A stretch of DNA of 64,000 bases from Chlorella sorokiniana (taxonomy: Eukaryota > Chlorophyta > Trebouxiophyceae > Chlorellales > Chlorellaceae): the NCBI GenBank assembly GCA_025917655.1, contig CP084611.1, positions 4,712,001 through 4,776,000 on the forward strand, read 5' to 3'. The translations under genes and the position numbers were made by a program. Below are positions 11,094 to 58,800 of this stretch, one piece after another (within the stretch, counting starts at the first letter, position 1; every line of letters starts with the position of its first letter). A model generated the notes under the pieces. That model searched no databases. It saw only the letters and a program-made list of their open reading frames with translations, and was not told the origin of the DNA.

Positions 11094-14000
11094 CTAGGAG
11101 TGATGGTGCCCCTCCGCACCGGCGATGCGCTGCAGCCGGCGAGTGCGCGGCAGCGACCGCGCAGTGGTGCCTGGCCCGTACACCACATCCACTTCGCACA
11201 GAGTGAGCGCCCTCTTTGCGTCGCCAGGGCGCCACACAGCGATGTAGCGGCCCACAGGGGGCCGCCGCCGGGCGTGGCGCCGCAGGCAAAGGTTCGTCGC
11301 TGGCCGCGCAGCACTCCCGGCACCGCGGCGCACAGAGTGAAGTTGGCTGCCGAGGCGGGGCCCGTCCACGGTTGCTGGCCGACAAGGATGCGGCTGCCCT
11401 GCAGGTCGGCGGTGCAGCCGCAGTCCGCCTGCGCCAGCAGGCTGACGGCGGCGATGGGCCGCGGGCCGGGCAGCTTCACAGCCCACCAGGGGTTGGCCTC
11501 CACCTCTGCGCTTGAAGGGAGGGGGAGGACAGGTTGTGTTCAGGGGCAATCAAACTAATCGGTGGGTGGGTGGGTGTTGGGGGAGGTGGCAGGGCAGCAT
11601 GCTGAGTTGAGAATCATTTGCATCGCCAGCAGCAGCAGGCAAGAGCCAAAGCTATGAGGGGCGGCGGCAGCAGCAGGTCCGAAGCGGCTCTCAGGCTGAG
11701 GCGAGCCGTGCTGTGAGGTCTCACTTGTGCGAGCGCAGGAGCCCTGCCACAACCGCTTCTTCTTGCACTCGCCGTCGATGGCGGCGTTGGCGCCGTAGCC
11801 CCTCACAGTGGAGCTCTGAGCGGCGGAGTTGAGGCCGCGCAGCGGGCTGGTGCCGCACACGGGTGCCGCCACGCCGCCACCCGCCCCCAGGATGGCGACG
11901 CCGGGCCCAGAGGGGACTGGCGGCGGCGGCCGCGCCGCGGCGGCGGCGGCCGCCGCACTGGCGACGGCGGCCGCGACAGCGCCACCGCGCCGCACTGCAC
12001 CAGCAGCGCTTCCAGCGCCGTCATGGCGGCCGACACGTTGAGGCGGCCGCCGGTGATGGTCTTGTCGGCGGCATCCGGCACTCGGTCCACGCTGCCCACG
12101 ATGAGCGACTTGAGGTCGGCATAGCCCAGGGTCACGCCGCGGCTGCACGCGTCCAGTCAAGCAGGGGCGAGGTCAGGCAGGCAGGAAGGCGGCTGCCTCA
12201 GGAAGAGCGCAGCGGAGGGCGGCGGCAGCGCAGCGTGCCACATGCCCCCCGCCTCCCTCGGCCAGCCGCTCCGCCCGGCCTCTCCCCACCTCCGCTGGCG
12301 GCGAGCACTCGGCACGTGCTCTCCGCCCCTGCCGCCGCCACCCAGCTGCCAGGCCCCTGCACCCTCCCAGCGCCTCGCACACCACGCACCACACACCACA
12401 CACCACTCACCTCATGGCCTGCGCCTGCAGCAGCGCCGCCGTGCCCGCCACCATGGGGCAGGCCATGGAGGTGCCCCACATCAGCTTGTAGGCGCCGTCC
12501 ATGAAGGTGGAGTAGATGCCCCCCCCGGGGCCAGCATGTGCACCGTGCCCCTGCGGGTGCGGCCAAGAGGAGGCGGGCGGCGGAGGCAGAGCTCAGGAAA
12601 GGCAGCTCCGGGTGTGGGTGTGTGGAAGGGGGGATGCAGAGGTGCGTCCGCCGCCTTCAACCCCTCCACCAGGGCTCCCCTCTCACAAAAGGAATTTTGC
12701 GGGCATGCGCTTGTCAGGGTGGGCGTGCTCAGCCCCGAAAGAGCGCGCGCGCCCCCCCCCCCCCCCGCTCACTGTCCGATGTTGGAGAAGGAGGAGACGA
12801 AGTCCTCCTTGCCCGACGACGCCACCGAGATCATGTTGTCGCTCTTGTAGGAGGTGGGGTACAGCGGCACGTCGTCCAGGTTGATGCCGCTGTTGCCGCT
12901 GGCCACCACAAACAGCTGCCCCGCGGTCTGGGAGGTGGCGATCTCCCGCTCCAGGAAGCCTGGACGGGGAGAGTGATAGGGGGGGCAGGGAGGTGGTGGA
13001 GGAGATGGGGGTGGGGTGGGGTGGGGCGTTTGAGGCAGTGGGGAGGAGGCAGCTGCTGGCAGGAAGGGCAGCGGGCACAGGTGAGCAACCGAGGCGACGC
13101 CGCCCCCCCCCCACCCTCATCAGCCACCCCAACCGTTGCAGTTTCCCCTTGGTCTTTCCAACGCCATCAACACACACTCGCAGCAGCCCGCCAGCCCGCT
13201 CACTGGAGTAGCCTATGCCTCCCCATGAGTTGGAGGTGATGAGGGCGCCCTCCTGCTTGCACAGCTTGATGCAGTTCATCGCGTCGCTCACGTAGCCCGA
13301 GCCGTCGTTCCAGATGAAGCGGCAGACGAGGAGCTTGACCCTCCAGGTGATGCCCGCAATGCCCAGCCGGTTGTTGCCCACCTGCGGGGCATTGAGGCAG
13401 GGGCGCCAGTGCGGATGGGGGCAGCGCGGGGGAGGGAGCCTCGCAGACAATGCAGTCGAGGCAGCTGGACCCTGCCTTCCCCACCCAGAACACACAGAGC
13501 GGCCGCCGTTGGCGCTACAACCAGCCTTGTTCAGGCATGCTGGGGCCACTTCCCCCGGCTGCCGCCGGCCCTACTCACCGCGCCGATGATGCCTGCCGTG
13601 TGCGTGCCATGGCCGTACGTGTCGTTGTAGTTGAAATAGTCTGGAGTGCCCGCCTGCGGCGGCGGCGTGCCATCCACCTGCGGCCACACTGGACGACCTG
13701 ACTCAGTCAGGGTGAGCGTGAGAGCGCAGAATTGTCAGGCAGTGCCCCGCCCCAGTGCCAGGACTGCGGTCGCAGCACAGGTGCGTAGGCTGCACAGGCA
13801 GGTAGATGCTCCGGCATGCCTGGCCCCCTCTCTGGTCCAACCTGCCCCGCCGGCACAAAGTTCCAGCCCTTGAGCACGTTGCCAGCGAGGTCGGGGTGGT
13901 CTATGCGCACGCCGCTGTCCACATGGCACACCTGCAGGGGGGCCAGCAGTAGGGGAGGGGAACTTGAGGACGGCGAGCAACGTGGCGAGCGCTCGTCAGC

Positions 14001-17835: not shown

Positions 17836-20800
17836 TCAAGGCGCCTTCTTGTGGATCAGCCCCGCCCCGTACTCGCGGTACTCTGCCGCGCTCATCCACA
17901 TCTGCTGGAACGTGCCCAGGGACGCAAGGATGGAGCCGCCGATCCAGACCGAGTAGCGCCGCTCCACGCTGTTGGTGGGGCACACCACCTGCAGCGGGGA
18001 TGTACGTATGTATGTAGGGGTGGGGGGTGTGGGGGATACATCAGTACTAGTGAGTGCAAAGCGATGGGTGGGTGGGTGAGTGGGCAGTGGGTCGGCCATG
18101 CGCGGGGACATCAGAGCCGCAGACGGACCGCCGCCAGCGGGCAGGCAGAGCGCTGCGCCAGCGCTCCGCCTCCCAACACGCCCCAGCCTGGGCCCCCGGC
18201 TCACCTTGACCTTGGCCATCTGAGGCGCCAGCTCGGCAACCTCCTTCTCCAGGCGGTCGCGCAGCGCGGCAAAGCCGGCGGTGCCGCCTGTGAGCACCAG
18301 GCCCGCGTACAGGTCTTTGCGGATGTCCACGTCGCACCTGCGCGGCACGATTCGATGCATTAAACAAGAAAGGGGCGGCGTCGTAAGCCCAACCTGAGGT
18401 GGGGCGGGTTGGCGGCAGCAGGGAGGGCGCAGGGATGCCGCTCGACCGCCTGCATGCTGGCGCTGTGCTGGCGCTGTGCTGCTGTCAAGTGAGGAGCGGC
18501 TGGACCCGCTTGACGATGACCAAAAATTGAAGCCTGCCCCGCGCTGGCAGATGGCGCGGCCGGCAGCCCACCGCCCCCGGCACCCGCCCCACCCCGCGCA
18601 CTTGCTGATGCAGTCGTTGGCCAAGGTGTGGATGCCGTGCAGCGCGTCCAGCCCTGCAGGCCCCCCAGCCGCTCTGCCGCCGGCCCATACCCCTCTGCCA
18701 GGAGCGGGTTGAACAGCAGCTCGGGGATGGCAAAGCGGTCGGTGCCCACCGCAATTTCCTGCAGCGGGGGCACGGCCACCCAGGGCAAGAACGATGGCGT
18801 TTAGGGCAAGACCAACGCACTTGGCAGGCCCGGCAAGCCCCTCACACATGGCGATGGGGGAACACAGGCTGAGGCTGCACATCAGGCGCTGTTGGGGCGC
18901 CAGGCGGGCGCCACCTGTCCGTCGGGCAGCTCGTACATCACGGTGGGGATGTTGGCGTTTTCCTGCACCCAGGAAGGAAGCAAAGTGCGGGCGTTTCGAG
19001 AAGGACAGGAGGATGGAGCGATGACTCCTTGTTCGACGGCTGGAGCGCCTTGGCTCCACACAGGCAGAGGGCAAGAAGGGGCCAGCCCCAGTCAAACACC
19101 CCCAGTCAAGCAGCCCACCTGCGGGTCGAACGCGTTGTCCGACACGCGGCAGATCGAGTCCTTGATGTCGGCAGCGATTGCCTCCACGCACCAGGCGCGG
19201 TAGCTGGCGGTGGTGGCCCCAGGGTCCACGGGGACCACCTGGATGAAGCGGGCGGTGCAGTTGAGGCATGTGAGGCTGGGGAGGTCGGGACCAAAGAGCA
19301 GGAAGACACAGTGGGGAAGCGGGCCGGCTGGGACGGCCAGTAAAACCGTGCAAGAGGGCCGATTGCTCGGTGCTGCAGCCGACAAGCACCCCGCACCTCC
19401 AGCTTGCCGCCCGCCCCTTCCTTGCGCTTGAACTCGTAGCGGGGCCGGATGGGGTGCCGCGCGCCTCCACTGCCGCCCCCATGCACTGCGCCAGCAGCTG
19501 GCCGCCAACCGGTGTGCTCAGCACAGACTTGACCAGCACGTAGCCATCGTGCACCGCGGAGACTGCGGCGCAGGAGGAGAACAAAGGGAATCAGGGACAG
19601 CAGGCGAAGCGCCAGGAGCAAAATGCACGGACGCCGCAACCGGCTGTCCGCTGCAGCGGCAGGTGGCAGTGCATAAAAACAACATGTGCGCAACGCAGGA
19701 TCACAGGAAAAATTTCACGACAAAGAGGCTAGCTGATGGGGGTGCACATTTTCAGCCCAGCATGGCATGCAGGGCGTGTCGAGTCGCCCATGAATGGGGC
19801 GGGCAGGGCCCATCTCTCTCACTCCCAACGTGTTCCTTCTCTCCTCCCCCCCCGCTCCTTTGACTGGGTAGTGATCAGCTGTTCACCATGGCTGTGAACC
19901 CCAAGGCCTACCCTCTGGCTGATGCTCAGGTAGGAGCGCGCACATGGCCCGCTTGCAGCGCCCCGCGCACCCCGCTGACCCTCTCCTTCTGCTCCCCGAT
20001 GCAGCTCACGAACACCATTATGGACATCGTCCAGCAGGCGACCAACTACAAGCAGCTGAAGAAGGGCGCCAACGAGGGTGCGATTCCCGCCGCATGCATA
20101 CCCTAGTGGTGGCTTTGCATGCTACAGCACACACGGGACAGCCGCCGAAAGTGCATCTTGTTCCCTCGCGCCGCCATGCAGCCACCAAGACTCTGAACCG
20201 CGGCATCAGCGAGGTGGTGGTGATGGCGGCGGACACCGAGCCCATCGAGATCCTGCTGCACCTGCCCCTGCTGGCCGAGGACAAGGTGCGCCCGCGGAAC
20301 CCGGACGGCGGCGCCTGCTCGGCGCCGCCGCCAGGCGCTGTCGGTCAACCTGTGGCAAACAAGAGCTGCTGGCCCTGCCAACCGGCCAGCATTGCAGCTG
20401 CTTTGGCAGGCAGCACGCGGCAGCTTCCCTCTGCTGCACGTCACCCTTGCTGCGCCTGCCGTCGCTCCCGTGCCCCGCAGAATGTGCCCTACGTTTTCGT
20501 CCCTTCCAAGGCCGCCCTGGGCCGCGCCTGCGGCGTTTCCCGCCCGGTGATCGCGTGCAGCATCACCACCAACGAGGGCAGCCAGCTGAAGAGCCAGATC
20601 CAGCAGCTGAAGCTGGCTATCGAGAAGCTGCTCATTTGAGAGGCAGCTGGGGGCCAGCAAGCGGCACATCCGGCACTACACAGCGGGCTGGGGGCAGCCC
20701 CCACGGCAAACACATCCCACCGTTTGGGTGTTGATTCACTTTGACGAGCCCGAGTGCAACAAACGCGCTGTCGGTGGGATGTCTGCCACCCGGCGTTTTG

Positions 20801-31630: not shown

Positions 31631-34339
31631 ATGTCGCTGGCCCTCCAGCCCGCCCAGTACTTTGGGCGAGATGTTTGCCGGCGGCAGCAGGTTGCGGCAG
31701 CGCTGCCTCCTTGGAGATCCAGCCAAAGGTGTCAAATCACGGATGTGAAGGTCCGGGCAGGCAGGCAAGATGCCGGCTGGGACAGCGGCAGCGGTGGCGA
31801 TGACGGCGACGGTCAGCAGGACCTGCGCAGGCAGGCTCGCCTCCTTAATGAGCTCTTCTTTGCCCCGTCGGCTGCTGAGGCACATGGTGATGCTGCAGGT
31901 GCGCAGGTTTGGGATGCATGGCCAGCTCTGTTGCGTCGGTCCAGCCCGCGACAGCAGGGCAGGCTGCTCCAGGCTCCCCCGCCCCCTTCAATCCTGTCCT
32001 CATTCTTGCCACACGTCCTCCTTTCAGCCGACCCTGTCGAGGGGCTCCAGCCTGGCAGCGCAAGTGCCTCGGCGGGGCCGCTGGAGATCCAAGACCTGCC
32101 GCTCTGGCGGGTGCAGTGGGCCGCGCTGCCGGGCAGCCGCGAGGTGCTGCACGTCCAGTGAGGCGCCGCGCTGCGCCGCGCCGCGCTGCGCTGCGCTGCG
32201 CTGCGCTGCGCTGCGCATTCTCCTGCACCGCTGTGGGGTATTTTCTGCTCATGGCGCCCCCACTGCAAGCGCCACGCTCCCACGCCAGAGCAGCCAGCGA
32301 CGGAACGCCGGCTCAAACCCACCCCCGCCGCGTTTGCGCCGCTCCCGGCAGCGTGCCGCATTACTGCGCCATGTTTGAGCGCCTCTTCCGCCAGCCCCGC
32401 CCCTGGCGCTTTGGCCACGTGTACCTGCCTGAGGGCAGCAAGAATCTGGGCAGCCCCGAGTACGCGCTGGCGCCGGGAACCAAGGTGGGGCGTGTGCAAG
32501 CAGTGTGGTGTTCATATGCGTGCGTGTGGTGCAGGCAGCGCGCGCTCACAGCTGCTCATGCTGGTTTTGTTGGGGGTATCGAGGCTGGATCGTGGGGGAT
32601 GGTCGTTGCTGTGATGGGAAAAGGGAGCGGGAATTGGTGCGTGGGTGCAGGCTGCACAGGGCATGGGAAGTTGGGGCGCAGCAACCCCTGCGTGGCGCCG
32701 CTCGAGGCTGAGCGCCAGGTCGAGCGCCGAGCTGCCTTCTCGGGCGAGGCCAGCACGCTGCCGGGCAGCCGGCTGCCCTGCCCTCACTGCGTCCCCCTGC
32801 TGCCCTGCCCATGCTCCTGCCTGCCGCAGGCGCCGCTGGCGGGGACCTTGATGGAGGTGCTGCAGGCGGTGCGGTTTGGCGACGGCCGGCTGCTGGTGCT
32901 GGCGGTGGGGGTGGCGCGGTTCCGGGCGGTGCGGGAGTTACAGGCGGTACCGTACTGCCGCGCCGACGTGGAGCTGCTGCTGGACGCGGAGGAAGCGCAG
33001 CGCTGGGAGGGCCTGGCGCTGCAGGCCGCCGACGGCGCCGCACGCGGCCTGGGCGGCGGCGACGGCGGCCAGCCGGAGCTGGCGGCGCTCATGCGCGCTG
33101 TGCCTGCTGCGGCGCGGCAGGCGGCGGCCGCACACAGCCTCGCCTGGCTGGAGTACGAGCTGTCCGAGGCGCGGCAGAGCGGCGGCGGCGACGGCGGCGG
33201 CGATGCCCCAGCCGTCATCGACGGCAGCCGCCCGGCGAGGCCCAGCTGATGGGCCGCCGCCTGGCCGCCATCGCGGGCAACGAGGTGATGGAGCTGCCCT
33301 TCTACGAGCCGCTGGCACTGGCGGCAGCGGCGCCGCCGCCGCCGCGGGAGGCGGGCGACGACGACGGCCAGAGCGGCGGCGGCGGCGCCAGCCTGGCGCT
33401 GCAGGACGCGCTGGCCGCGCTGCGCCCTGCGCTGCGCCGTGCTGAGGCCGCCGCCTGCACCCTGGCCACGTCTGCGGCGGCCGCGGCGGTGGAGCGCCAC
33501 CTGGCGCTGCCAGGCGCCGGCCCCGCGGCAGGCGGCGCGCCCGAGCCGCCAGCAGCAGGCGGCGGCGGCGGTCCTCAGCTGGCAGACCCCGCGCGGCTAA
33601 ACTCCGCCGCGGAGCGGGGTGCCCTGGCAGGGGCCCGACGACGTGTTGGAGCCGGAGGGTGAGGCAGGGCCCGGGCAGCGCTCGATTGCACCGCATTCCC
33701 GGCGCTTCTGCTGCCCACCCCTCGCCCTACCCCCATTGACGTGCTTGCGTGATCACTCTCTGCACTGTACGCTTCTTCTTCAGTGTATGCTGCCGCTATA
33801 GCGCCGCGCTTCCCAGCTGCGCGCTGCCTCATGCTGTGCACCTCTGCGAGTTTAGAGCCCCATTCTCTCCGTTCTGTCCAAGGCCCGCCCGCGCCGCTCC
33901 CCGCGTGCAGAGAGCGCTGCCGGCGAGCCCGACAGCCTGGCGGCGGCGCTGAAGCTGGAGGCGGCGGTGTGGCGCGAAATCGACGCCGTGCACGCCCTGG
34001 CCAGCAAGCTGCGCGAACGGGCCGCCCCCTGCAGCAGGGCGTGCGCTGCCTGCGGCCCTGGACCGACGGCCCCGGAGCCGGGGGCGCGGGCGGCGCAGCG
34101 GGCGGCAGCGCTTCGGCGCGGCTGGCGGCCCTGGGCGCGCACCCAGAGTACCCCTCCCTGCGCCGCGCGCAGCGCCTTCCTTTGCGGTGGTGTCCCTGCT
34201 GGGGAACGTGACCGCGGCGGAGGGGCGCCAGGCGTGGGTGGAGGCGGGCAGCACGTGCGCGCGGCTGCGCCTGGGGCTCGCCGCGCTGCGCTCGCACCGC
34301 CGGGTGCTGGCGGCGGTGGTGGCGGTGGAGGGGCTGTGA
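31631..34339 (+). CDS. LON substrate-binding (N-terminal) domain protein
   Basis: A stand-alone LON-domain protein without the ATPase or protease parts. Such proteins are often linked to protein turnover, but the role here is unknown. Exons: 31631-31898, 32028-32157, 32352-32484, 32830-~33658 and 33911-34339. It starts MSLALQPAQYFGRD. Exons 2-3 give DLPLWRVQWAALPGSREVLH, then PHYCAMFERLFRQPRPWRFG and EGSKNLGSPEYALAPGTK. Exon 4 starts with APLAGTLMEVLQAVRFGDGR and VLAVGVARFRAVRELQAVPY, and then has NEVMELPFYEPLALAA. The end has KLEAAVWREIDAVHALASKL and YPSLRRAQRLSFAVVSLLGN. Single-base changes are needed at 33231-33233, 34025-34029 and 34177-34178. A GCTGC repeat lies in intron 2. Confidence 0.85.
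32163..32217. repeat. Pentanucleotide (GCTGC)n microsatellite
   Basis: Seven or more near-perfect units after degenerate GCCGC units, just inside intron 2 of the LON-domain gene, right after its donor site. Confidence 0.9.
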
Positions 34340-48918: not shown

Positions 48919-50315
48919 GGCCTTGTGGCAAGTTGCTGCTGTCGGCTGCAGTCTGCCTAGGCGTCCCTAATTGGAGGATGCCCGTGCACGTGTTGGAGCG
49001 GGCTGCAGAACCAACCCTCCCATGCCCTGGTTTCTCCGTACCCTGTTTGTAAAGCTAACAGCAGATTTGTGAACGTTTGCTTCGATTCGATTGGCGGAAA
49101 AGAGCTCAGCCGAGCAACACGTGGGCAGCAAGTGCTGCGCAGCCCACTAGCGGATGGGACGAACACAGCATGTCACGTTTCAGGGCCATGAAAGGCGTGT
49201 TATGCTCTTCAAAGAATGATTTTGCAGCTCTGAGTCTTTCAGACGCTCTTTGTGCCACTCCCGCTTACGCGCTCTCGACTTGTCTTTTTCAAAACAAACC
49301 ATCCCCTGCTGACACCGTTCGTAAGTTACGCTTGAAATCAGACTGATACAGAGCTGGCATCGGCCTCTCATTGGGCAGCATATGCTTTATGCGGTCCCCG
49401 TTCAGCGACGGTCGCCAGCAGCAGTTCATTCCCTGTTCCCTGTATGGGGCAGCGACTTGCTGCAGCCCTTACTTGAAATCTTTCATGTTAAGCATGCAAG
49501 AGCCAGCTAGTGCACCAGCAGCAACGTGCAGGCAGGCAGCGCTGCGGCGTCATTTTCCACGGTTCCCAGCCAACCCGGTACGCATGAAGCACCAGGACAA
49601 AGCAGTTAGTTATGCAGCAGTTCAGCTTGGCGCCGGCAAAAGTTCAGGCCTGCTCTGTGTATCCATCTGGACAGAGACTTGTTTTTATTGCAGCTGCCAG
49701 CCCTTCCACGGGTGGAAGCCTGACAATCATCGAGGGTGGCCGACAGCTGGGTGCAGCGTTGGGTTTGAGAGTGAATGCGCACCATCGCCACCTGCTGCCT
49801 CAAGAAGGCATGAGCTCTCCTGGGCTGCAGGCTGCATTGAACGGCAAGCAGCGGCGGGGCCCGTGATGCGCTTAGCCCGGGGCCCGTGATGCGCTCCTCC
49901 ATCACCAGTCTGCTGCTGCAGCACAGTGCTGAATCCGAACTGCCTGGCAATTGAACTTGTGGCAGCGCTGCAGGTATAGGGTCTGCTGCTGTGAGCAGCC
50001 TCCCACTCAAACTATATGGCCAGACCCGGTCTGGGCCCCAGACCGAATGTGCAGACCCAGTACAGCGCTGGGTGTACTTCAGGCGTAGCAAAACCGATGG
50101 GCGTCGCTTGATCATGCAGGCCGCCCTATGCCTTCGTGATAACTGTCAACATGAGACAGTGCGGGCGGGGCCAGCCCGATCGAAGAAGGATGGCCTCCGC
50201 CACTGCTTGGTCAGGCAAGGCGTGCACTCTAGGGGAATCGCAGGATGCCCTTGCAGTAATGCGCTCAATGGTTGCAGTGGCACAGCGGGTGCAACATTTC
50301 CGCGTGCTGGGCGCC
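48919..50315. other. Intergenic/divergent promoter of GLR (-) and ER lectin (+)
   Basis: About 1.4 kb with no recognisable exon. It was checked for an amino-terminal (LIVBP-like) domain belonging to the glutamate receptor, and none was found. Confidence 0.5.
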
Positions 50316-53300
50316 ATGCGGCGGCGGTCCTCGCCACTCTCCTTCCCTCCCACGCTTTCGCTTCTCATGTCTGTGCAGCATGGGCTGGGCTCAATGCGCT
50401 CCTGTGCTTGGCCTGCCTTGCGACGCCGGTGGAGGGCCTGCAGTACCAGCACGATGAGCTCTTGTGGACCAAGCAGGTAGGCCGCCGTTGTGGGCGCGGT
50501 GCCACCGGCGCCCGCATCTCCCTCGCACAAGCTCGCGCGTGCGCCCGGCTTGATACACTGGTGTCCCGCCTTTCGGATCCTCCCGCAGAACTGGCAGGAG
50601 TACAAGCTGCCCTTCCCCTGGTCTGCGGTGCTCAAGGAGCGCGATGCAGAGGCCACCCGGCAGATGCAGGGCCCACTGGCCGGCTTCTCCTCCCACTCCC
50701 TCAACGGCCCCCTGGGCGCCGCCGACGCGCTGGCGCAGCGCGTGGCCGAGGACGCGGCGCGTGGGCCGACCCTGCAGCGCGCCGGGCTGGACCTGTCGCT
50801 GCTGGATGAGGACGCGCGGCTGGCGGCCGCCGCCGGCGTCGCGCAGTGCAAGGCGTGCGGCGTGCTGGCGCGGCAGCTCTGGGAGGGGCTCACCGCTTGG
50901 GTCCACCAGCACCGCAAGGTGCCCAACCGGATGCGCATAGCGGCCTTCGCGGAAGATCTTTGCGAGTATGAGGTGGGTGCAGGTGGAAAGAGAGCAGCGG
51001 GGCAGCAGGGAAGGAGAAGCATGGTGCCAGCAGGGCTGGCACTGCTGACATGTCGCACGGCGGGGACAGCCACGCGTGTCCTGAAGCCCAGCGGGAGGAC
51101 GAGCATGGCGGCCGCTTGCCACACAGGCCTCCATCATGTCGCGGCGGTCTGCATTGCGGGTGGCAAGACGGCCAGCCAAAGTGCCGCCACGGTGCCAAAC
51201 CGAGCGACTTGGCTGTGCACTGACGGCGGCACTGGGTCCCACACCCCTGTATGCCGCCGTGGCCCCCAACCCCACCCCCTCCTATCCCCAACCCCACCCA
51301 CCCACACCCACACCCACCACCCACCCTTTGCACAGGTCATGACTGAGCTGCTGAAGGGCTGGGTGCTTCTGCGTGCGCGGGTACAGCAGGCTGAGGGCCT
51401 GCCCTCGTCCGTGGAGGGGCAAAGCCAGGAGTTTTACATGCTCGGGTGCGGCCGGCCAGCTGCCTTCCGGCTTCTGCCGTGCAAACGCCGACCTCACTGG
51501 CTCGTCCGAAACAAGCCCACAGCTCTGGGTGCATGCTGTCAAGGAAGCCTGCCGCCTGTCTTGGCTTCCGCGTTCCCCCTTTCCCTGCAGCAAGCGCGCC
51601 AAGCAGCATGCCACGCCTTCCGAAATCGAGGCGGCGCGGCTGGCCTGCAGCAAGCTGCTGCAGGAGGATGAGACGGGTGGGTGACGCCGCGGGCAGTCAA
51701 GCACAAGTAGTGATCCCTCCTGCTGCCTGCATCGTCTCGGCGTGGATGCTTTCTCGCTGTGCTGCGTCTCAACCCATCCGGAGCCTGCCCAGCCAGCTTG
51801 CAGTCCACCAACGCTGCCCCCTGCCTGGCCTGCGCGCGCCCGCTCTCCACACAGCCTTGCTCTCGCCCCCAACCCAACCGCCCTGCCCGGTGCCCTGCCC
51901 GCCTTAAAACTAGGCAAGGAGAAGCCCCAGGTGCTGTCCCAGGCCTCCACCTTGCTGCACAAGTATCACCGCCTCATGGAGCGGCGGCTGGGCGGCGGCG
52001 GCGGCCAGCTGGAGCAGGGGGCGGTGGAGGGGGTGGACGATGGGCCGGCCGCGCAGCGCGCCTGCTTCGACCGCCACCCCCAGTGCGAGATGTGGCGGGA
52101 CAAGGTGGGTGATGGGGCGCTGAGCGGGCAGCAGGCTGGCCCGAGCAGCAAAGATCCTCCAGCGGTCTAGACCTCGCCGCCATCTCTTTCCTGCCCCTTC
52201 CCCATCCAAATCCAACCTACCCACCATGCAGGGGAGTGCGAGTCAAACCCCAAGTATATGGTGGGCGACGAGGGCGCCGACAACGGCTGGTGCCGCGCGG
52301 CGTGCGGGCGCTGCAAGCCGGGGCAGCCGCATGAGTTGGAGGGGCTGAAGGGTGAGCCGAAAGAGGGGCGGCGGACCGCGCGGTTTGCGGGTTGTTTCTG
52401 CAGCAGCAGCCAAGGGACCCTGTGTGGACAAGTCGGTTGTGGGCTCTTTCTGAGGCACCTGGCAGGCCAGGCAGCTCGCTATGCAGCAACTGCTGCCTGG
52501 ATCCCCGACCCCCGACCCCCACACCCACACCCTTCAGCGCCACCCACCATTCGCCCACCTTCCCATGCTGCCGCCCCTTCCCCCAGCGATGATGCCGAGT
52601 ACCTTCGCTTGGTTCGAGCCGACCTGCTGGCGGTGCTGCAGACCAAAGCGTGCTCAGCTGCGGCGCCCTGCAAGTGGGCCACGGGGAGGGCATGCAGCAG
52701 TTGCTGGCAGCCGCGCGGTCGGGCGCCGACGCGGAGGAAGCGGGGCTGCTGGAGCGAGCAGAGTTCATCGGGGCCCGGTGCTGTCGGCGCAGCAGCAGCT
52801 GGAGCTCGCGCTGGACCACACGCGGTGAGAGGGTGGTGTGCACCCTTGGGGGAGTGTGGGTGTGAAGGCGTTGATGTGTGTGTGGGGGGGCTGCGGGCGC
52901 TCAAGCTCGACCAGAAGCGTGTCTGGGACGGGGGGAGGGCCGCGAGGATCAGCGGCAGGGAGGCATGTGATTTGCCGAGGTGGCAGCACATGCCAGGCCG
53001 CCCGATGATGGCCTGGATTCCTGGCGGAAGGGCACCCCGCCGTGTGCCCCCGCATTGCCCCTCCACACTGTGCTGCGCCTCACGTCACCCCACCTGGTTG
53101 CTTCCCATCCCCCTCTCCCCACACACACACAGCCCACCACCACAACCACCACCATTTTCTCCCCGCCCTGCCTGCAGGTTGAAGGAGAGCCGGCCCATGC
53201 TGGCAAGGGACCTGGACGATGCGCTCGTCCCGGACACCGCCCGCGCCGCCAAGCGCTCCGGCGAGGCGCCCGAGCCGCCAGCCACCGAGGCGGCGGCGGC

Positions 53301-55192
53301 GCTGTGGTCGGAGCTGGGCAACCGCTGCCTGTACCTGACCACGGTGCACCGCTGCGCTGATGGGCTGGGACGGGGTCGGGGGCGGGCAGAGTTGTCCTTG
53401 CTTTGTCGCAGGGGAAAACGGCGCTTCTGCACCGCCGCTGTTTGAGCCTATCCTAGCCGCCCAAGCATACCCCAACGCTGTCCCCTATCTCTCCCCTCCT
53501 GCTTAACTTCCTGCAGGGCTGGTGGATGTATGAGGTCTGCTACATGCACCACATCAAGCAGGCAAGTGCACACAGGAAATGGAAAAGGAGAGGGAAGAAA
53601 GTTCACCGCGGCCCGGCTCGTTCCCTGCCCGTTGCCGCTCGGCCCTCCGCCCACATCCCCTGCCGTTTCACCCGCCGCGGGCCCCTGCGCCCGCTTGCTG
53701 CCCTGCTTCCTTGTCCTCTTGTGATGGGCCCTGTATGCCTCTGGCCAGTGCTGCCAGCCTTGTCCCGTGCTCCTCAGCTGCTGCAACTGGCCAGCCCAAC
53801 CTCCTGCCCGGTGCTCCCTCAACCCACCGTCCAGCGATACTGCCATCCCCTGGTCGCCGTCCTCCCTGCAGTCTCCCCGCTTTTCACCACCCACTTGCGC
53901 TTCCTCCACCCTCCCACGCAGTTCCACATGACCGACAAGCACGAGGTGGACTGGGTCATTTCTCTGGGCCGCTTCCAGCCGGCCGCCTCCAACTGGACGG
54001 CAGCCAACGCCAGCCTGACGGGCCTGTACCCGCACTTCACGCGGGTGGGCCCACCGCTGCTGCCTTGTTCATCCGGTGCCCAAACCTTTTCTTGCGCCTG
54101 CCCCCCATAAATGCGGCTGGCAGCACGCTGCATGGTGGCAGGCGGTTGCTGCTGGCTCAGCCACGCGTGTCGTGCAGCGTTGCGGGTGGCCGCTCAGGGC
54201 ACGAGGTTGGGGAGCCCGCGCGTGCGTGCGCGCGCACCATCGCCGCTGCGCTCCGTCGCAGCCACCCCGCTGCGTGCAGCGGCAGGGCGCGTCCGCCCAT
54301 CCACCCTGCTGCCTCCTGTGCAGGTGCCATACGTGTCTCAGGCCTACGCCAGCGGCAACCACTGCAATCTGGACCCCGACGAGGACGGCGGCCAGCGCTC
54401 CATATTGCGCCGCTCTGAGCTGCGCCTCATGTGCAGGTAGGATAGCTGGGTGGTTGCCAGTGGGGGAACGGGTTGGGGCCGCGCTGCGGCTCACTTGGGC
54501 ACAGCAAAAGGAGCGCCTGGCCGGCCCGCACGCATGTCACGGGCCCGCTGGTGGCCAGCCGCCGCTGTCGCCTTGATCGCTCGTGCCGCCTCCTGTGCTA
54601 TAGCTGGTTCCCCTCCCTTCCACCCCTCCACGGCTTTTCCTCCCCTTTACCGCATCCTCTTCCCCCGGTGTTCGCACGAGTGCATACATGCAAGCGCACC
54701 TTTGCACCCGGCCACCCGCCCGCCGCCGCCGCCGCCGCAGCCCGGACCCGGACACCCACATCGTCGTGAGCGAGCCAGAGCAGTGCGTCTACACAGTGGA
54801 GCTCTACCTGGCCCGCCTCTGCGCCCTGCCCGGCTTCGCCCCCACCTGCCCGACCCGCTGGGATCGCACGCGGGCTGGGACCTGGCGGCGGCGGGCGGGC
54901 GGCGGCGGCGGCGGCGGCCGAGCGCAGCGGCCCTTGACGCGGCGGGCGCTGCGACCGCTGCCGTTGGCAGCAGCGGGGATGAGGGGGAGGAGGAGGGGGC
55001 ACGGGGCTGGGGCCCACCTATGCGCTGCCGGTGAGCGAGGAAGAGGACGAGTATGCTGACCCTGACGAGGAGGAAGGCAGCCAGGAGGAGAATGCGCGGT
55101 CCGAGAGCGGGACAGGCTCGGCGGGCGGCAGCGACAGCGGGCAGCCCACCGAGGGCGAGGGCGGCGACGGCGACGGCCACGACGAGCTGTAG
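50316..55192 (+). CDS. HDEL-tagged ER lectin with saposin/canopy-like, ShKT and OS-9-type MRH domains
   Basis: A putative ER-lumen glycoprotein quality-control (ERAD) lectin. A signal peptide is visible (LNALLCLACLATPVEG, about 50390-50440), though the exact ATG is uncertain. Next is a saposin/canopy-like segment (AQCKACGVLARQLWEGLTA and AAFAEDLCEYE, about 50845-50970). A six-cysteine ShKT module spans two exons (CFDRHPQCEMWRD, GECESNPKYM, NGWCRAACGRC; about 52065-52325). After helical linkers comes the MRH domain: GWWMYEVCYMHHIKQ, FHMTDKHEVDWVISLGRFQP, VPYVSQAYASGNHCNL, RSELRLMC and VVSEPEQCVYTVELYL (about 53517-54830). The MRH Gln, Arg, Glu and Tyr that bind mannose are all present. An acidic tail ends GDGDGHDEL at 55192, the ER retrieval signal. 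Several single-base changes are needed (for example 52590-52800). Two adjacent genes cannot be wholly excluded. Confidence 0.8.
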
Positions 55193-55843
55193 CAGCGGCG
55201 GGCCCCGGCTGGCGGCACATGCGGCGGGCACCTCCTGCCGCTGCCTTGCGCAGGCCCTGCCCCTGTGCCCTGCGTGCAACCTGCTTGCATCGCTGCTGCA
55301 TGGAGTTCAGTGTGCAGTTGTTGTTGCATGCACGTGGGGAAGCCTGACAATGGAGGCCCCATTGAGTGCATCACAGAGCGGGGTAGGCAACCAGAGGCGG
55401 AGCGCAGAAGAGAACAAAATGCGGGCCTTGTAGCTTCAAAAGGCCAGGGCAATAATGGTGCGGCGGGGGGGCGGGAGAGAGGCGAAGGCAGTGCGTGCGC
55501 AGGACCGCAGTGCTGCCAGCCGACTGTGAGCTATCGCTACGACTAGGGAAAGGACATGGGCATGGCGCCGATGGCGGCGCTTTTGGGGGCACTGCGGACG
55601 ACGCTGCTGAGGGAGGGAGGGTGCGGCTGGGCTGCATGCGCCTCCGGGACGCACACCCCAGCCGCGTGAGGGCCTCCGACGGCTGGCCGCCGCCGCTGTG
55701 CAGCGTGCCTGCACTTGCGCTGCGACGGCTGTTGCCACAGGTGAGGGGGAATGCACTCGTTGACGCCGAAGTGCCTCCCGCAGCAGCAGCAGCAGGCCGC
55801 AGGTGGACCAGGCGCGTCCTGACGTGACGGCAGGACGCCGCAG
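55193..55843. other. Convergent 3' flanks of ER lectin and MRS2 copy 1
   Basis: About 650 bases without a recognisable exon or RNA gene. No clear TGTAA was assigned. Confidence 0.5.
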
Positions 55844-58800
55844 CTAGATGAGGCGCTTCCAGCGGCAGTACATCATGACTGAGGTGAAGATGACGATGGC
55901 CCCAATGCCGGTGCTGATGGACACAGCCAGGAACCAGGAGTAGGGAGCCTGGCCCTCGATGTCGGGCTGCAGCATCACGTTCATGGCAAACAGGCCGGTG
56001 ATGGCGGTGACGAGGGCCACCGAGGCGCTGAAGGAGGTCAGCACCAGGTCCAACTGCATAGACGCAACGAGGGGGCAGGGCAGCGCTGGAAGCGAAATCA
56101 GGGCGGACGGCAGCCGCAGAACGCCGCACAGTGGCAGGCACACGTGCGCTGCGTGCGCGGCAGCGTGGGGTGGCCGTTTCTGGCGGGTGGGGTGCAGTTT
56201 TGTCCGCTTCCGCTTCCGACCCGTCCCCATTTCCTCACCCGAATGAGCGCATTGCGGTGCGAATCGAGCTCGATGTTGATGTAATCCTGCGCACACGCAG
56301 GGTTGGGCAGGAGGTGCGGGGCAGGTCCGTGAGTTCACAGGGGTGACCGAGGGAGGGCAGAGACCATCCGCCCACAGCACACTGCAGCTGGGGCTGCGGC
56401 TGCCTGCCCCCAGTCCACTGCCGCACACGTGCCAGCAGGCAGCGAGGTGGAGGAAGTAGGCAAGGCGCACCTCTGTATCGTCGATGTACTCGCACAGTGT
56501 TTGCAGCTTGTTGTAAGTGTTGTCAATCTGGGTGGAGTGAGGAAGGAGGGTGACGAGGGTGGGGAGGGTGGTGTGCTCAAGGCGAGAGTGAGCAGAAAGG
56601 AAGGGGGACCAGAGTTGCGATCTCACGCTTCCCGCGCCACGCCGCCCGCCCCTCGCCGCACGCTGCTGTCGGCAAGCTCCCAGCCAGCTTACCCCCGCCC
56701 CCATCCCTGACGCACTTCACCCTCTCGCCTGCGCTCGTCTGGGTTCACATGCCTCACACCCCATCCCTCACATACCTTGCCTCACAGGCAACAACAGCAA
56801 CCCGCCACAGCCCACCTGCATGAAGTAGGGTTCCATCAACATCTCCACCACCGCCACGTCCGGGTCGTCTTCCAGATCGGTGGAATCAGAGGAGGCGGAG
56901 GAGGCGGACTTGGGGGTCATCGGGGTCATGGCCTCCAGGGCGGCGGGCTGCAAGTGGAGAACAGTGGGCCAGAAGCAAGTGGGGAACAGTGGGCCAGAAG
57001 CAAGTGGGGAACAGTGGGCCAGAAGCAAGTGGGGAACAGTGGGCCAGAAGCAAGTGGGGAACAGTGGGCCAGAAGCAAGTGGGGAACAGTGGGCCAGAAG
57101 GGTGGCGAGAGGTGGGATGAGGGGAGAGAAGGCAGCAGGTGGTCAGCTGTCGAGCACGGCGGGCGAGGCGTACACACAGGGCGCCAGCGCGGCAGGAGGC
57201 ACGCAAACGAGGCACGCCGCGGCGCGCCACGGCGGCTAGGGATGCTGCGACAGGCGGCCAAGCAGCGGCGCTCGTGCAAGGTGCTCTGCAAGAAAGACCG
57301 CACCTCTGCGCCGCTGGCGCCCGTGTAGGGCAGCGGCACGTCGAAGGGCGTGGCTGCGCCGGAGCGCACGTGGCGGTTGAACAGCTCCAGACGCTCCTCC
57401 TCCTGGCAGGGGAGCAGGGGGTGCAGTGCGGCGGAGAGGTGTGCATGCGCGCGCTTGCCGGGGCGGGCCTTCTCCACGTTCAGGGCAAGGCATGCTGGAG
57501 CAAGGGCCGCCAGGGGGCGGTTGGTGACGCCGCCCCACCAGGCTCGGGACGTTGTAATTACAGCTCTTGGCTTCCGTACACACACCACACCTGTGCGCGC
57601 GCGCGCGCCCCCCACACACACACCACCCATCCCCGCACCGCAAAACACACACCCACACACTGCCCCACCCCCTCATCAGCAGACCTTGGCCGTGAGGTTG
57701 AGGTCCTTCATGTCTGAGTCGTCATCCAGGAACTTCTCCAGCACCTCCCGCAGCGTCTCCACCCGTGTCGTCAGCCGCACCATTCGGTTCTTGATGCGTC
57801 GCACGCGCTCCAGGTTGGAGGTGTTGATCTGTGGGGGGTGCATGGGTGGGATGGGGGTTGGGGGTTGGGGATACAAAAAAGCAGGCGGCAATCGGTCTCA
57901 ACCAAAGCCCCAAAGTCGTGTGTGTGTGTGTGTGGGGGGTGCCAGGGTTGGCAACGTGAGGCAGCAAAGGCCCAAGGCAGCAAAGACCAGCGGCCAGAAC
58001 GCGACCGAAGATATCAAGGAAGCTTTGCACGCTGACTTCCTTCCCATCCCCCGCCAATTCTCACTCAACCCCGTCTCAAAGACCTACATCCACGAAATTT
58101 GCTTCCGCCCACACACCTTGCCAGTCAGAGCATCCAGCGCGGGATGCGCCGCCGCCTCCAGGTCGCCCGTCAGCCGCTCGAGGTACTGAGAAACCGTGTC
58201 CAGCGCAATTTCCAGCGCCCGCAGCTCGAAGGGCAGCTCCTCGTGCGCCGCGGGGATGGAGGAGAGCGGGACGGGGCCACTGGGGCCGCTGCTGCCGCCG
58301 CCTGTGCGCCATGTGAGCAGCAAGTGTCGGCGTTGGGGCTCGGCGGAACCCCTGCACCGACGCACTGGCAGCCTGCACACCCTCCCCAAGCCTGCAAACC
58401 CAGTCACACCATCGCTCCCAGCGCAAGCTCACCGGCTGCACCTGCCAGGTTGGCAGCGGACTGCGACACAAACAGGCCGCCGGGGCCGCTGGTGGCGCGG
58501 CGGCGGCGGCGGCGGCGGCGGCACGCAGCCGCCGCTGCAGCTCCTCCACAAACGACTGGGTGTTGGCGTCTTCCAAGTTGGTGATGTAGATGTTGTCTGA
58601 AAGGGCAGAGCGGGGAAGGGCAGCCTTTCAAGAGGGGGTGTGAAGCAGCTCCAACAGCCGGAGGCACTCCTTCCCAGCCCGGTTACGACTGGCAGCGCAC
58701 CCATGGCAATGATGCACTTGATGAACTCCAGATTCACCACGATGGCGCGCTCACGGGCCAGGATGGCCGAGGGATAACTGGTGGCCAGCTGAGGGTCCAT

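What the first reader, a model, noticed from the sequence alone, without database searches (positions are those of the whole stretch)
50316..55192. Possible new ER lectin architecture: saposin/canopy-like + ShKT + MRH + HDEL
OS-9/Yos9 lectins normally have an MRH domain with a signal peptide. Here the same spliced open structure appears to carry a CxxC saposin/canopy-like region and a six-cysteine ShKT module before the MRH domain, and it ends in an ER retrieval HDEL. All four mannose-binding residues of the MRH are kept. The combination would join protein-folding and lectin functions in one ERAD factor. It is the best candidate here for an undescribed system.
Basis: partly seen in the sequence, partly recalled or inferred. 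Interest (0 to 1): 0.78.

Follow-up and report, generated by a model that had tools for sequence, protein, structure and literature searches.

The report
Second algal OS-9 lectin with ShKT
A green-alga gene appears to encode a second, unusual sugar-reading protein of the cell's protein quality control, carrying an extra six-cysteine module; the chaperone-like part claimed for it is not supported by the tests made, and its last part is in doubt because the assembled reading frame seems disturbed.

Summary
Partly confirmed. The window is nuclear DNA of a photosynthetic alga. A 12-exon gene (+ strand, about 50316/50378-55192) encodes an OS-9/Yos9-type MRH domain (PRKCSH 59 bits; best solved structure OS-9) with both tryptophans, the Q/R/E/Y sugar site and six cysteines kept. 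Before it lies a ShKT module (24.7 bits, cut-off 20.9, on joined exons; only 15.6 in the full reading), 47% identical to one in another gene of this genome. The canopy/saposin claim is not supported: no Pfam or solved-structure match, chance-level similarity to the genome's own canopy protein. HDEL codons exist (55178-55189) but, as assembled, lie out of frame with the MRH, whose frame stops at 55057. Codon usage indicates frame jumps in exons 7 and 12; similar jumps elsewhere suggest assembly errors, but decay is not excluded. The genome also has a canonical OS-9 and a glucosidase II beta, so this is a divergent second OS-9-type lectin. No relative was found in the bacterial, archaeal and viral collections that could be scanned. 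New variant of a known kind; moderate interest.

The parts
50378..50476 (+). Exon 1 (3' part): hydrophobic leader, probable signal peptide (by eye); start codon unresolved (ATG at 50316 is in another frame)
   Evidence: codon score -9.9 in the best of three frames, so weak
50589..50972 (+). Exon 2: N-terminal region with CKAC (C-x2-C) and a third cysteine; no family match
   Evidence: codon score +35.0 against -140.3/-161.5
51336..51445 (+). Exon 3: continuation of the N-terminal region
   Evidence: phase-consistent junctions, codon score +5.7
51591..51676 (+). Exon 4: continuation, further cysteine
   Evidence: codon score +11.2
51914..52104 (+). Exon 5: Gly/Glu-rich linker and first part of the ShKT module (alternative donor 4 bases downstream)
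52232..52351 (+). Exon 6: second part of the ShKT module (last four of six cysteines)
   Evidence: ShK 24.7 bits on joined exons; 47% identity to the ShKT in L004
52587..52824 (+). Exon 7: linker between ShKT and MRH; codon usage runs through three frames in turn (jumps near 52645 and 52770), although one literal frame is open throughout
53178..53343 (+). Exon 8: linker and start of the MRH domain
   Evidence: codon score taken to 53337
53517..53561 (+). Exon 9: MRH, double tryptophan and sugar-site Gln; GC-AG intron follows
53922..54044 (+). Exon 10: MRH
54324..54436 (+). Exon 11: MRH, sugar-site Arg
54741..55192 (+). Exon 12: end of MRH (sugar-site Glu and Tyr), acidic tail; frame jump(s) between about 54930 and 55000; the MRH frame itself stops at 55057-55059
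55178..55189 (+). HDEL codons followed by TAG
   Evidence: this frame scores +20.8 against -57.8/-97.4 over 55010-55192

Best explanation
One nuclear gene of a green alga encodes an ER lectin of the OS-9/Yos9 type, additional to the alga's canonical OS-9. The MRH domain would bind N-glycans that mannosidases have trimmed to expose an alpha-1,6-linked mannose and pass misfolded glycoproteins to the Hrd1-SEL1L/Hrd3 degradation complex. The C-terminal HDEL would hold the protein in the ER, as in yeast Yos9. The ShKT module, of a form also found in another gene of this genome, would be a disulfide-rich binding module that adds client or partner contacts, perhaps for cell-wall glycoproteins. Shown: MRH with intact sugar site, ShKT on joined exons, splice signals, HDEL codons, a second OS-9-type gene. 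Inferred: one transcript, signal peptide, ER location, glycan binding, ERAD role, and that the frame jumps are assembly errors.
For: PRKCSH 59 bits; OS-9, ERLEC1 and Yos9 are the six best of seven solved-structure rows, with the sugar-site residues aligned. ShK over its cut-off on joined exons, 47% identical to a ShKT of the same genome. Eleven introns, 10 with GT and 1 with GC, all ending in AG. Codon usage is positive in one frame for exons 2-11 taken piecewise, exon 7 in three pieces cut by eye (exon 9 only +1.1). Exon 7, between the two halves, is coding and joins exon 8 in phase. By eye, the only hydrophobic leader is at the 5' end and the only HDEL at the 3' end. GH47 mannosidase exons (20 matches at four places) and a glucosidase II beta (L010) are present, so the glycan pathway exists. 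Frame jumps without an intron also lie in an actin-related gene (about 19452; Actin Pfam on both sides), in a subtilase-like gene (about 12528) and, by eye, in the canonical OS-9 of L011.
Against: HDEL is out of the MRH frame as assembled, and the stretch 54860-55010 scores negative in all three frames (best -15.6). Codon usage needs two jumps in exon 7 and one or two in exon 12. In the HSP70/TCP-1 matches only 1 jump was seen in 17,715 coding bases, so a uniform error rate of that size would not explain them. The start codon is unresolved. No transcript and no relative is available. The MRH is more divergent than the canonical one (best PDB score 52 bits, against 106 bits for L011). ShK fell below its cut-off in the full-length reading.
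Confidence: 0.6

Rival explanations
1. The gene is decaying: a former second OS-9-type lectin that has lost its frame by several single-base changes and no longer makes a full working protein.
For: Codon usage shows frame jumps in exons 7 and 12; the HSP70/TCP-1 matches showed 1 jump in 17,715 bases; start codon unresolved.
Against: Codon usage stays coding on both sides of the exon 7 jumps and before and after the disturbed stretch of exon 12; splice signals and sugar-site residues are kept; a literal splice has no stop before 55057; similar jumps lie in other genes, an actin-related one and canonical OS-9 among them; by the decoder, the window as a whole has no more jumps per codon than the control loci.
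Confidence: 0.2
2. Two adjacent genes: a small secreted ShKT protein (exons 1-6) and a separate MRH lectin (exons 7-12).
For: The exon 6/7 junction is one base out of phase with the frame that codon usage favours at the start of exon 7, and no relative is available to show the joined order.
Against: Exon 7 is coding and joins exon 8 in phase; exon 6 joins exon 7 in phase in the literal open frame. No TGTAA or AATAAA was found on the + strand in 50001-56000, but none after 55192 either, so this says little. By eye, the MRH half has no leader of its own and the first half no ER signal.
Confidence: 0.12
3. The assembly is right as it stands: the protein is read literally through exon 7 and ends at 55057, without HDEL.
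For: A literal splice is open from exon 2 to 55057.
Against: Literal exon 7 scores -63.6, against +21.8 with two jumps; exon 12 read to its end in the MRH frame scores -126.4 (stops included), against +36.7 with two jumps; HDEL followed by a stop at the end of the other frame would be a coincidence.
Confidence: 0.08
4. The first reader's full reading, a special case of the best explanation: a canopy/saposin-like folding domain, a ShKT module and an MRH lectin joined in one ERAD factor.
For: Cysteine spacing resembles canopy (by eye); the best local match to this genome's own canopy protein covers the C-x2-C helix.
Against: No DUF3456 or saposin match in Pfam and none in solved structures; 30 of 500 shuffles score as high in the local and 27 of 500 in the end-to-end canopy alignment; the PF11938 search of the genome found one place, a separate canopy gene.
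Confidence: 0.15

Closest known systems
OS-9 / XTP3-B (ERLEC1) / Yos9 ERAD lectins
   Same: MRH domain with double tryptophan and the Q/R/E/Y sugar site; six MRH cysteines; HDEL as in yeast Yos9 (that Yos9 ends in HDEL is recalled)
   Different: Extra ShKT module and a long N-terminal region before the MRH; divergent MRH; the same genome also has a canonical OS-9. Arabidopsis OS9 lacks HDEL/KDEL (passage of PMC3332353), as do mammalian OS-9 and XTP3-B (passage of PMC7835635)
Glucosidase II beta subunit
   Same: MRH/PRKCSH domain and an ER-retrieval C-terminus (RDEL in L010)
   Different: The N-terminal cysteine region and the long acidic segment seen by eye in L010 are absent here; no glucosidase II beta among the seven structure matches
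ShKT-bearing prolyl 4-hydroxylases of green algae (the association is recalled)
   Same: ShKT of the same extended form, 47% identical to the one in L004, where it follows a hydroxylase-like segment by eye
   Different: No hydroxylase match here; ShKT lies before an MRH
Canopy (DUF3456) ER proteins
   Same: C-x2-C and scattered cysteines, ER-type C-terminus
   Different: No sequence match clearly above chance; this genome has a separate canopy gene (L008/L009)

Membership tests
OS-9/Yos9-type ERAD lectin | MRH (PRKCSH) domain, closest to OS-9/ERLEC1/Yos9 | tested here: met
   59 bits; best solved structure 3aih, OS-9, E 5.1e-13
OS-9/Yos9-type ERAD lectin | Double Trp and Gln/Arg/Glu/Tyr sugar-site residues | tested here: met
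   Aligned to W117, W118, Q130, R188, E212, Y218 of OS-9 (numbered by counting in that alignment); Arg188 is named in a passage of PMC7835635 and the double tryptophan in one of PMC3332353; the role of Q130, E212 and Y218 is recalled
OS-9/Yos9-type ERAD lectin | Signal peptide | tested here: inconclusive
   Hydrophobic leader in exon 1 by eye, no in-frame start codon resolved
OS-9/Yos9-type ERAD lectin | ER retrieval signal (Yos9 only) | tested here: inconclusive
   HDEL codons present but out of the MRH frame as assembled
OS-9/Yos9-type ERAD lectin | Binding to SEL1L/Hrd3 and to alpha-1,6-mannose glycans | not testable with these tools
   needs experiment
ShKT domain (PF01549) | Six-cysteine pattern and score over the curated cut-off | tested here: met
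   24.7 bits and 24.2 bits on joined exons, cut-off 20.9, best stretch profile 2-26 of 37; but 15.6 bits in the full reading
Canopy (DUF3456) / saposin | Profile match over cut-off | tested here: not met
   No match at E up to 1 or 10; none in solved structures
Glucosidase II beta subunit | N-terminal region of the family beside the MRH | tested here: not met
   No such Pfam match in the N-terminal exons; a gene with that make-up is elsewhere (L010)

The most novel reading that the evidence does not exclude
Green algae of this lineage carry a second, dedicated ERAD lectin in which a saposin/canopy-like helical cysteine domain and a ShKT module select a class of clients, such as hydroxyproline-rich cell-wall glycoproteins, for glycan-read degradation, held in the ER by HDEL.
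Probability: 0.17. Interest if true: 0.6.

Novelty: new variant of a known kind. Interest (0 to 1): 0.4.

Why it matters
[quoted passage not shown] An alga with a second OS-9-type lectin that carries its own HDEL and a ShKT binding module would show a different way of holding and aiming ERAD lectins in the green lineage, and would give a natural test of what the extra module does.

Tried and rejected
Relatives: the search for related loci with the MRH half in genome contigs (72 stretches matched a pattern, none a relative) and viral contigs (5 stretches, none), and with the N-terminal half in genome contigs (276 stretches, none). These collections hold bacteria, archaea and viruses, so absence says little about algae. 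In its own genome the N-terminal region matched only this gene at E up to 0.1 (4 rows).

Papers: no paper held joined PRKCSH with 'ShK domain' (0) or ShK with the full MRH name (0). One search listed 2 papers of no use; others (4; 20 of 64 listed; 20 of 37; 10 of 130) were seen as listings. Of PMC3332353 and PMC7835635 I saw 12 passages each. Statements about novelty rest on these searches of an open-access library only.

Sen34 as a match of the N-terminal region (E 0.002): rejected as a low-complexity alignment (by eye). Structure prediction was not run: the tool takes proteins given letter for letter by the DNA, and this one is spliced.

Frame-jump controls: a first decoder merged neighbouring genes, and with another start cost its control counts were not comparable. 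A revised one, counting genes with a score over 15, gave at F=13 in the window 10 deletion- and 1 insertion-type jumps in 3,988 codons, against 9 and 4 in 2,837 codons of the 20 HSP70/TCP-1 loci and 3 and 3 in 1,585 codons of L009-L011; at F=9: 24/9, 11/9, 7/8; at F=11: 15/5, 9/6, 4/5. So the window leans to deletions but, at F=13, has no more jumps per codon than the controls, and many of these calls may be false. In this gene the related run (F=11) placed 2 jumps (52770, 53350).
Full report
Setting. The window is part of an unnamed eukaryotic genome of 38,804,885 bases in 15 contigs (C1:4712001-4776000). Chlorophyll a/b-binding exons are present (41 matches), the G+C of the window is 65.4% and introns are frequent, so it is a photosynthetic alga; that it belongs to the Chlorella group is my inference.

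Gene model. Twelve exons on the + strand were placed by reading frame and splice signals: 50378(or upstream)-50476, 50589-50972, 51336-51445, 51591-51676, 51914-52104, 52232-52351, 52587-52824, 53178-53343, 53517-53561, 53922-54044, 54324-54436, 54741-55192. Of 11 introns 10 begin with GT and 1 with GC; all 11 end in AG. Phases agree at 1/2, 2/3, 3/4, 4/5, 7/8, 8/9, 9/10, 10/11 and 11/12. At 5/6 they agree with a donor 4 bases downstream. At 6/7 they agree with the literal open frame of exon 7 but are one base out for the frame that codon usage favours there. The start codon is unresolved.

Domains. The MRH half gives PRKCSH at 59 bits. Its best solved structures are OS-9 (3aih, 9og0), ERLEC1 and Yos9. 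In the alignment to full-length OS-9 six cysteines, both tryptophans and the residues at Q130, R188, E212 and Y218 are kept. ShK is over its cut-off when exons 5 and 6 are joined either way, but not in the full-length reading (15.6 bits). A ShKT of the same extended form, 47% identical, lies in L004 after a segment that looks like a prolyl 4-hydroxylase by eye; Pfam showed only ShK there. The N-terminal region gave no DUF3456 or saposin match and no relevant structure. Against this genome's own canopy protein, pieced together by eye, it scored 39, with 30 of 500 shuffles as high. So the canopy idea is open but unsupported.

Paralogues. At E up to 0.1 PF07915 matches three places in the genome: the canonical OS-9 at C1:2927684 (L011, 51.3 bits, the only single exon over the cut-off; best PDB matches ERLEC1 at 106 bits and OS-9 at 92 bits), one exon of this gene (24.3 bits), and C3:4430653 (L010, 23 bits), which I read as glucosidase II beta from its N-terminus and RDEL end (by eye; PRKCSH_1 32.9 bits). 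DUF3456 matches once, at C1:115193, a separate canopy gene.

Frame jumps. A codon model was trained on 57 of 57 HSP70 and 46 of 55 TCP-1 exon matches (17,715 bases, G+C at third positions 90.5%). The 9 TCP-1 rows were left out without a fixed rule; one had a stop and two long insertions. It favours one frame for each of exons 2-6 and 8-11 (exon 9 only +1.1 against -21.0 and -25.0). Exon 7 rises from -57.2 with no jump to +21.8 with two; its literal open frame scores -63.6. Exon 12, read from the MRH frame, rises from -126.4 to +11.0 with one jump and +36.7 with two. In exons 2, 5, 8 and 10, read in their right frame, up to three jumps add at most 12.9 bits. HDEL is therefore out of frame with the MRH as assembled, though its segment is strongly coding (+20.8); the stretch before it, 54860-55010, is negative in all three frames.

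Error or decay? Jumps without an intron are also seen in an actin-related gene near 19452, with Actin Pfam matches of 121 and 83 bits on the two sides, in a gene with a subtilase-like motif near 12528 (label by eye; a piece of it gave no Pfam match), in an ORF near 33232, and in the canonical OS-9. The profile-based control gives 1 jump in 17,715 bases, which makes this gene unusual. The decoder gives more jumps everywhere, with no higher rate per codon in the window than in the controls at F=13, but a lean to deletions (10:1 against 9:4 and 3:3). I judge assembly error more likely than decay; it is not shown.

One gene or two. Exon 7 is coding and joins exon 8 in phase; by eye only the 5' end has a hydrophobic leader and only the 3' end an ER signal. 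This favours one gene. cDNA is needed.

Function. From established knowledge of OS-9/Yos9 (passages of PMC3332353 and PMC7835635), MRH lectins of this kind read an exposed alpha-1,6 mannose on misfolded glycoproteins and work with Hrd1 and SEL1L/Hrd3. GH47 mannosidase exons occur at four places in this genome. The added ShKT is read here as a binding module, not as a toxin; that is inference.

Noticed in passing
62871-60192 and 59502-55844 (- strand): Two tandem, closely similar genes decoded; an N-terminal piece of the second matches Pfam MRS2-like magnesium transporters (33.6 bits).
   Followed up: partly
about 19452 (- strand): Actin-related gene with a mid-exon frame jump; Actin Pfam on both sides. 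Points to assembly errors.
   Followed up: yes
48197-45890 (- strand): Ligand-gated ion channel match (Lig_chan, 42.4 bits) in an alga.
   Followed up: no
3601-1043 and 5814-4737 (- strand): RWP-RK match on a piece of the first gene; the second looks alike by eye.
   Followed up: no
L008/L009 (C1:115193-115387): Separate canopy (DUF3456) gene whose matched stretch contains an in-frame TAG.
   Followed up: partly
L011 about 5100: Canonical OS-9 gene: by eye the frame changes inside its MRH at a run of G, without an intron.
   Followed up: partly
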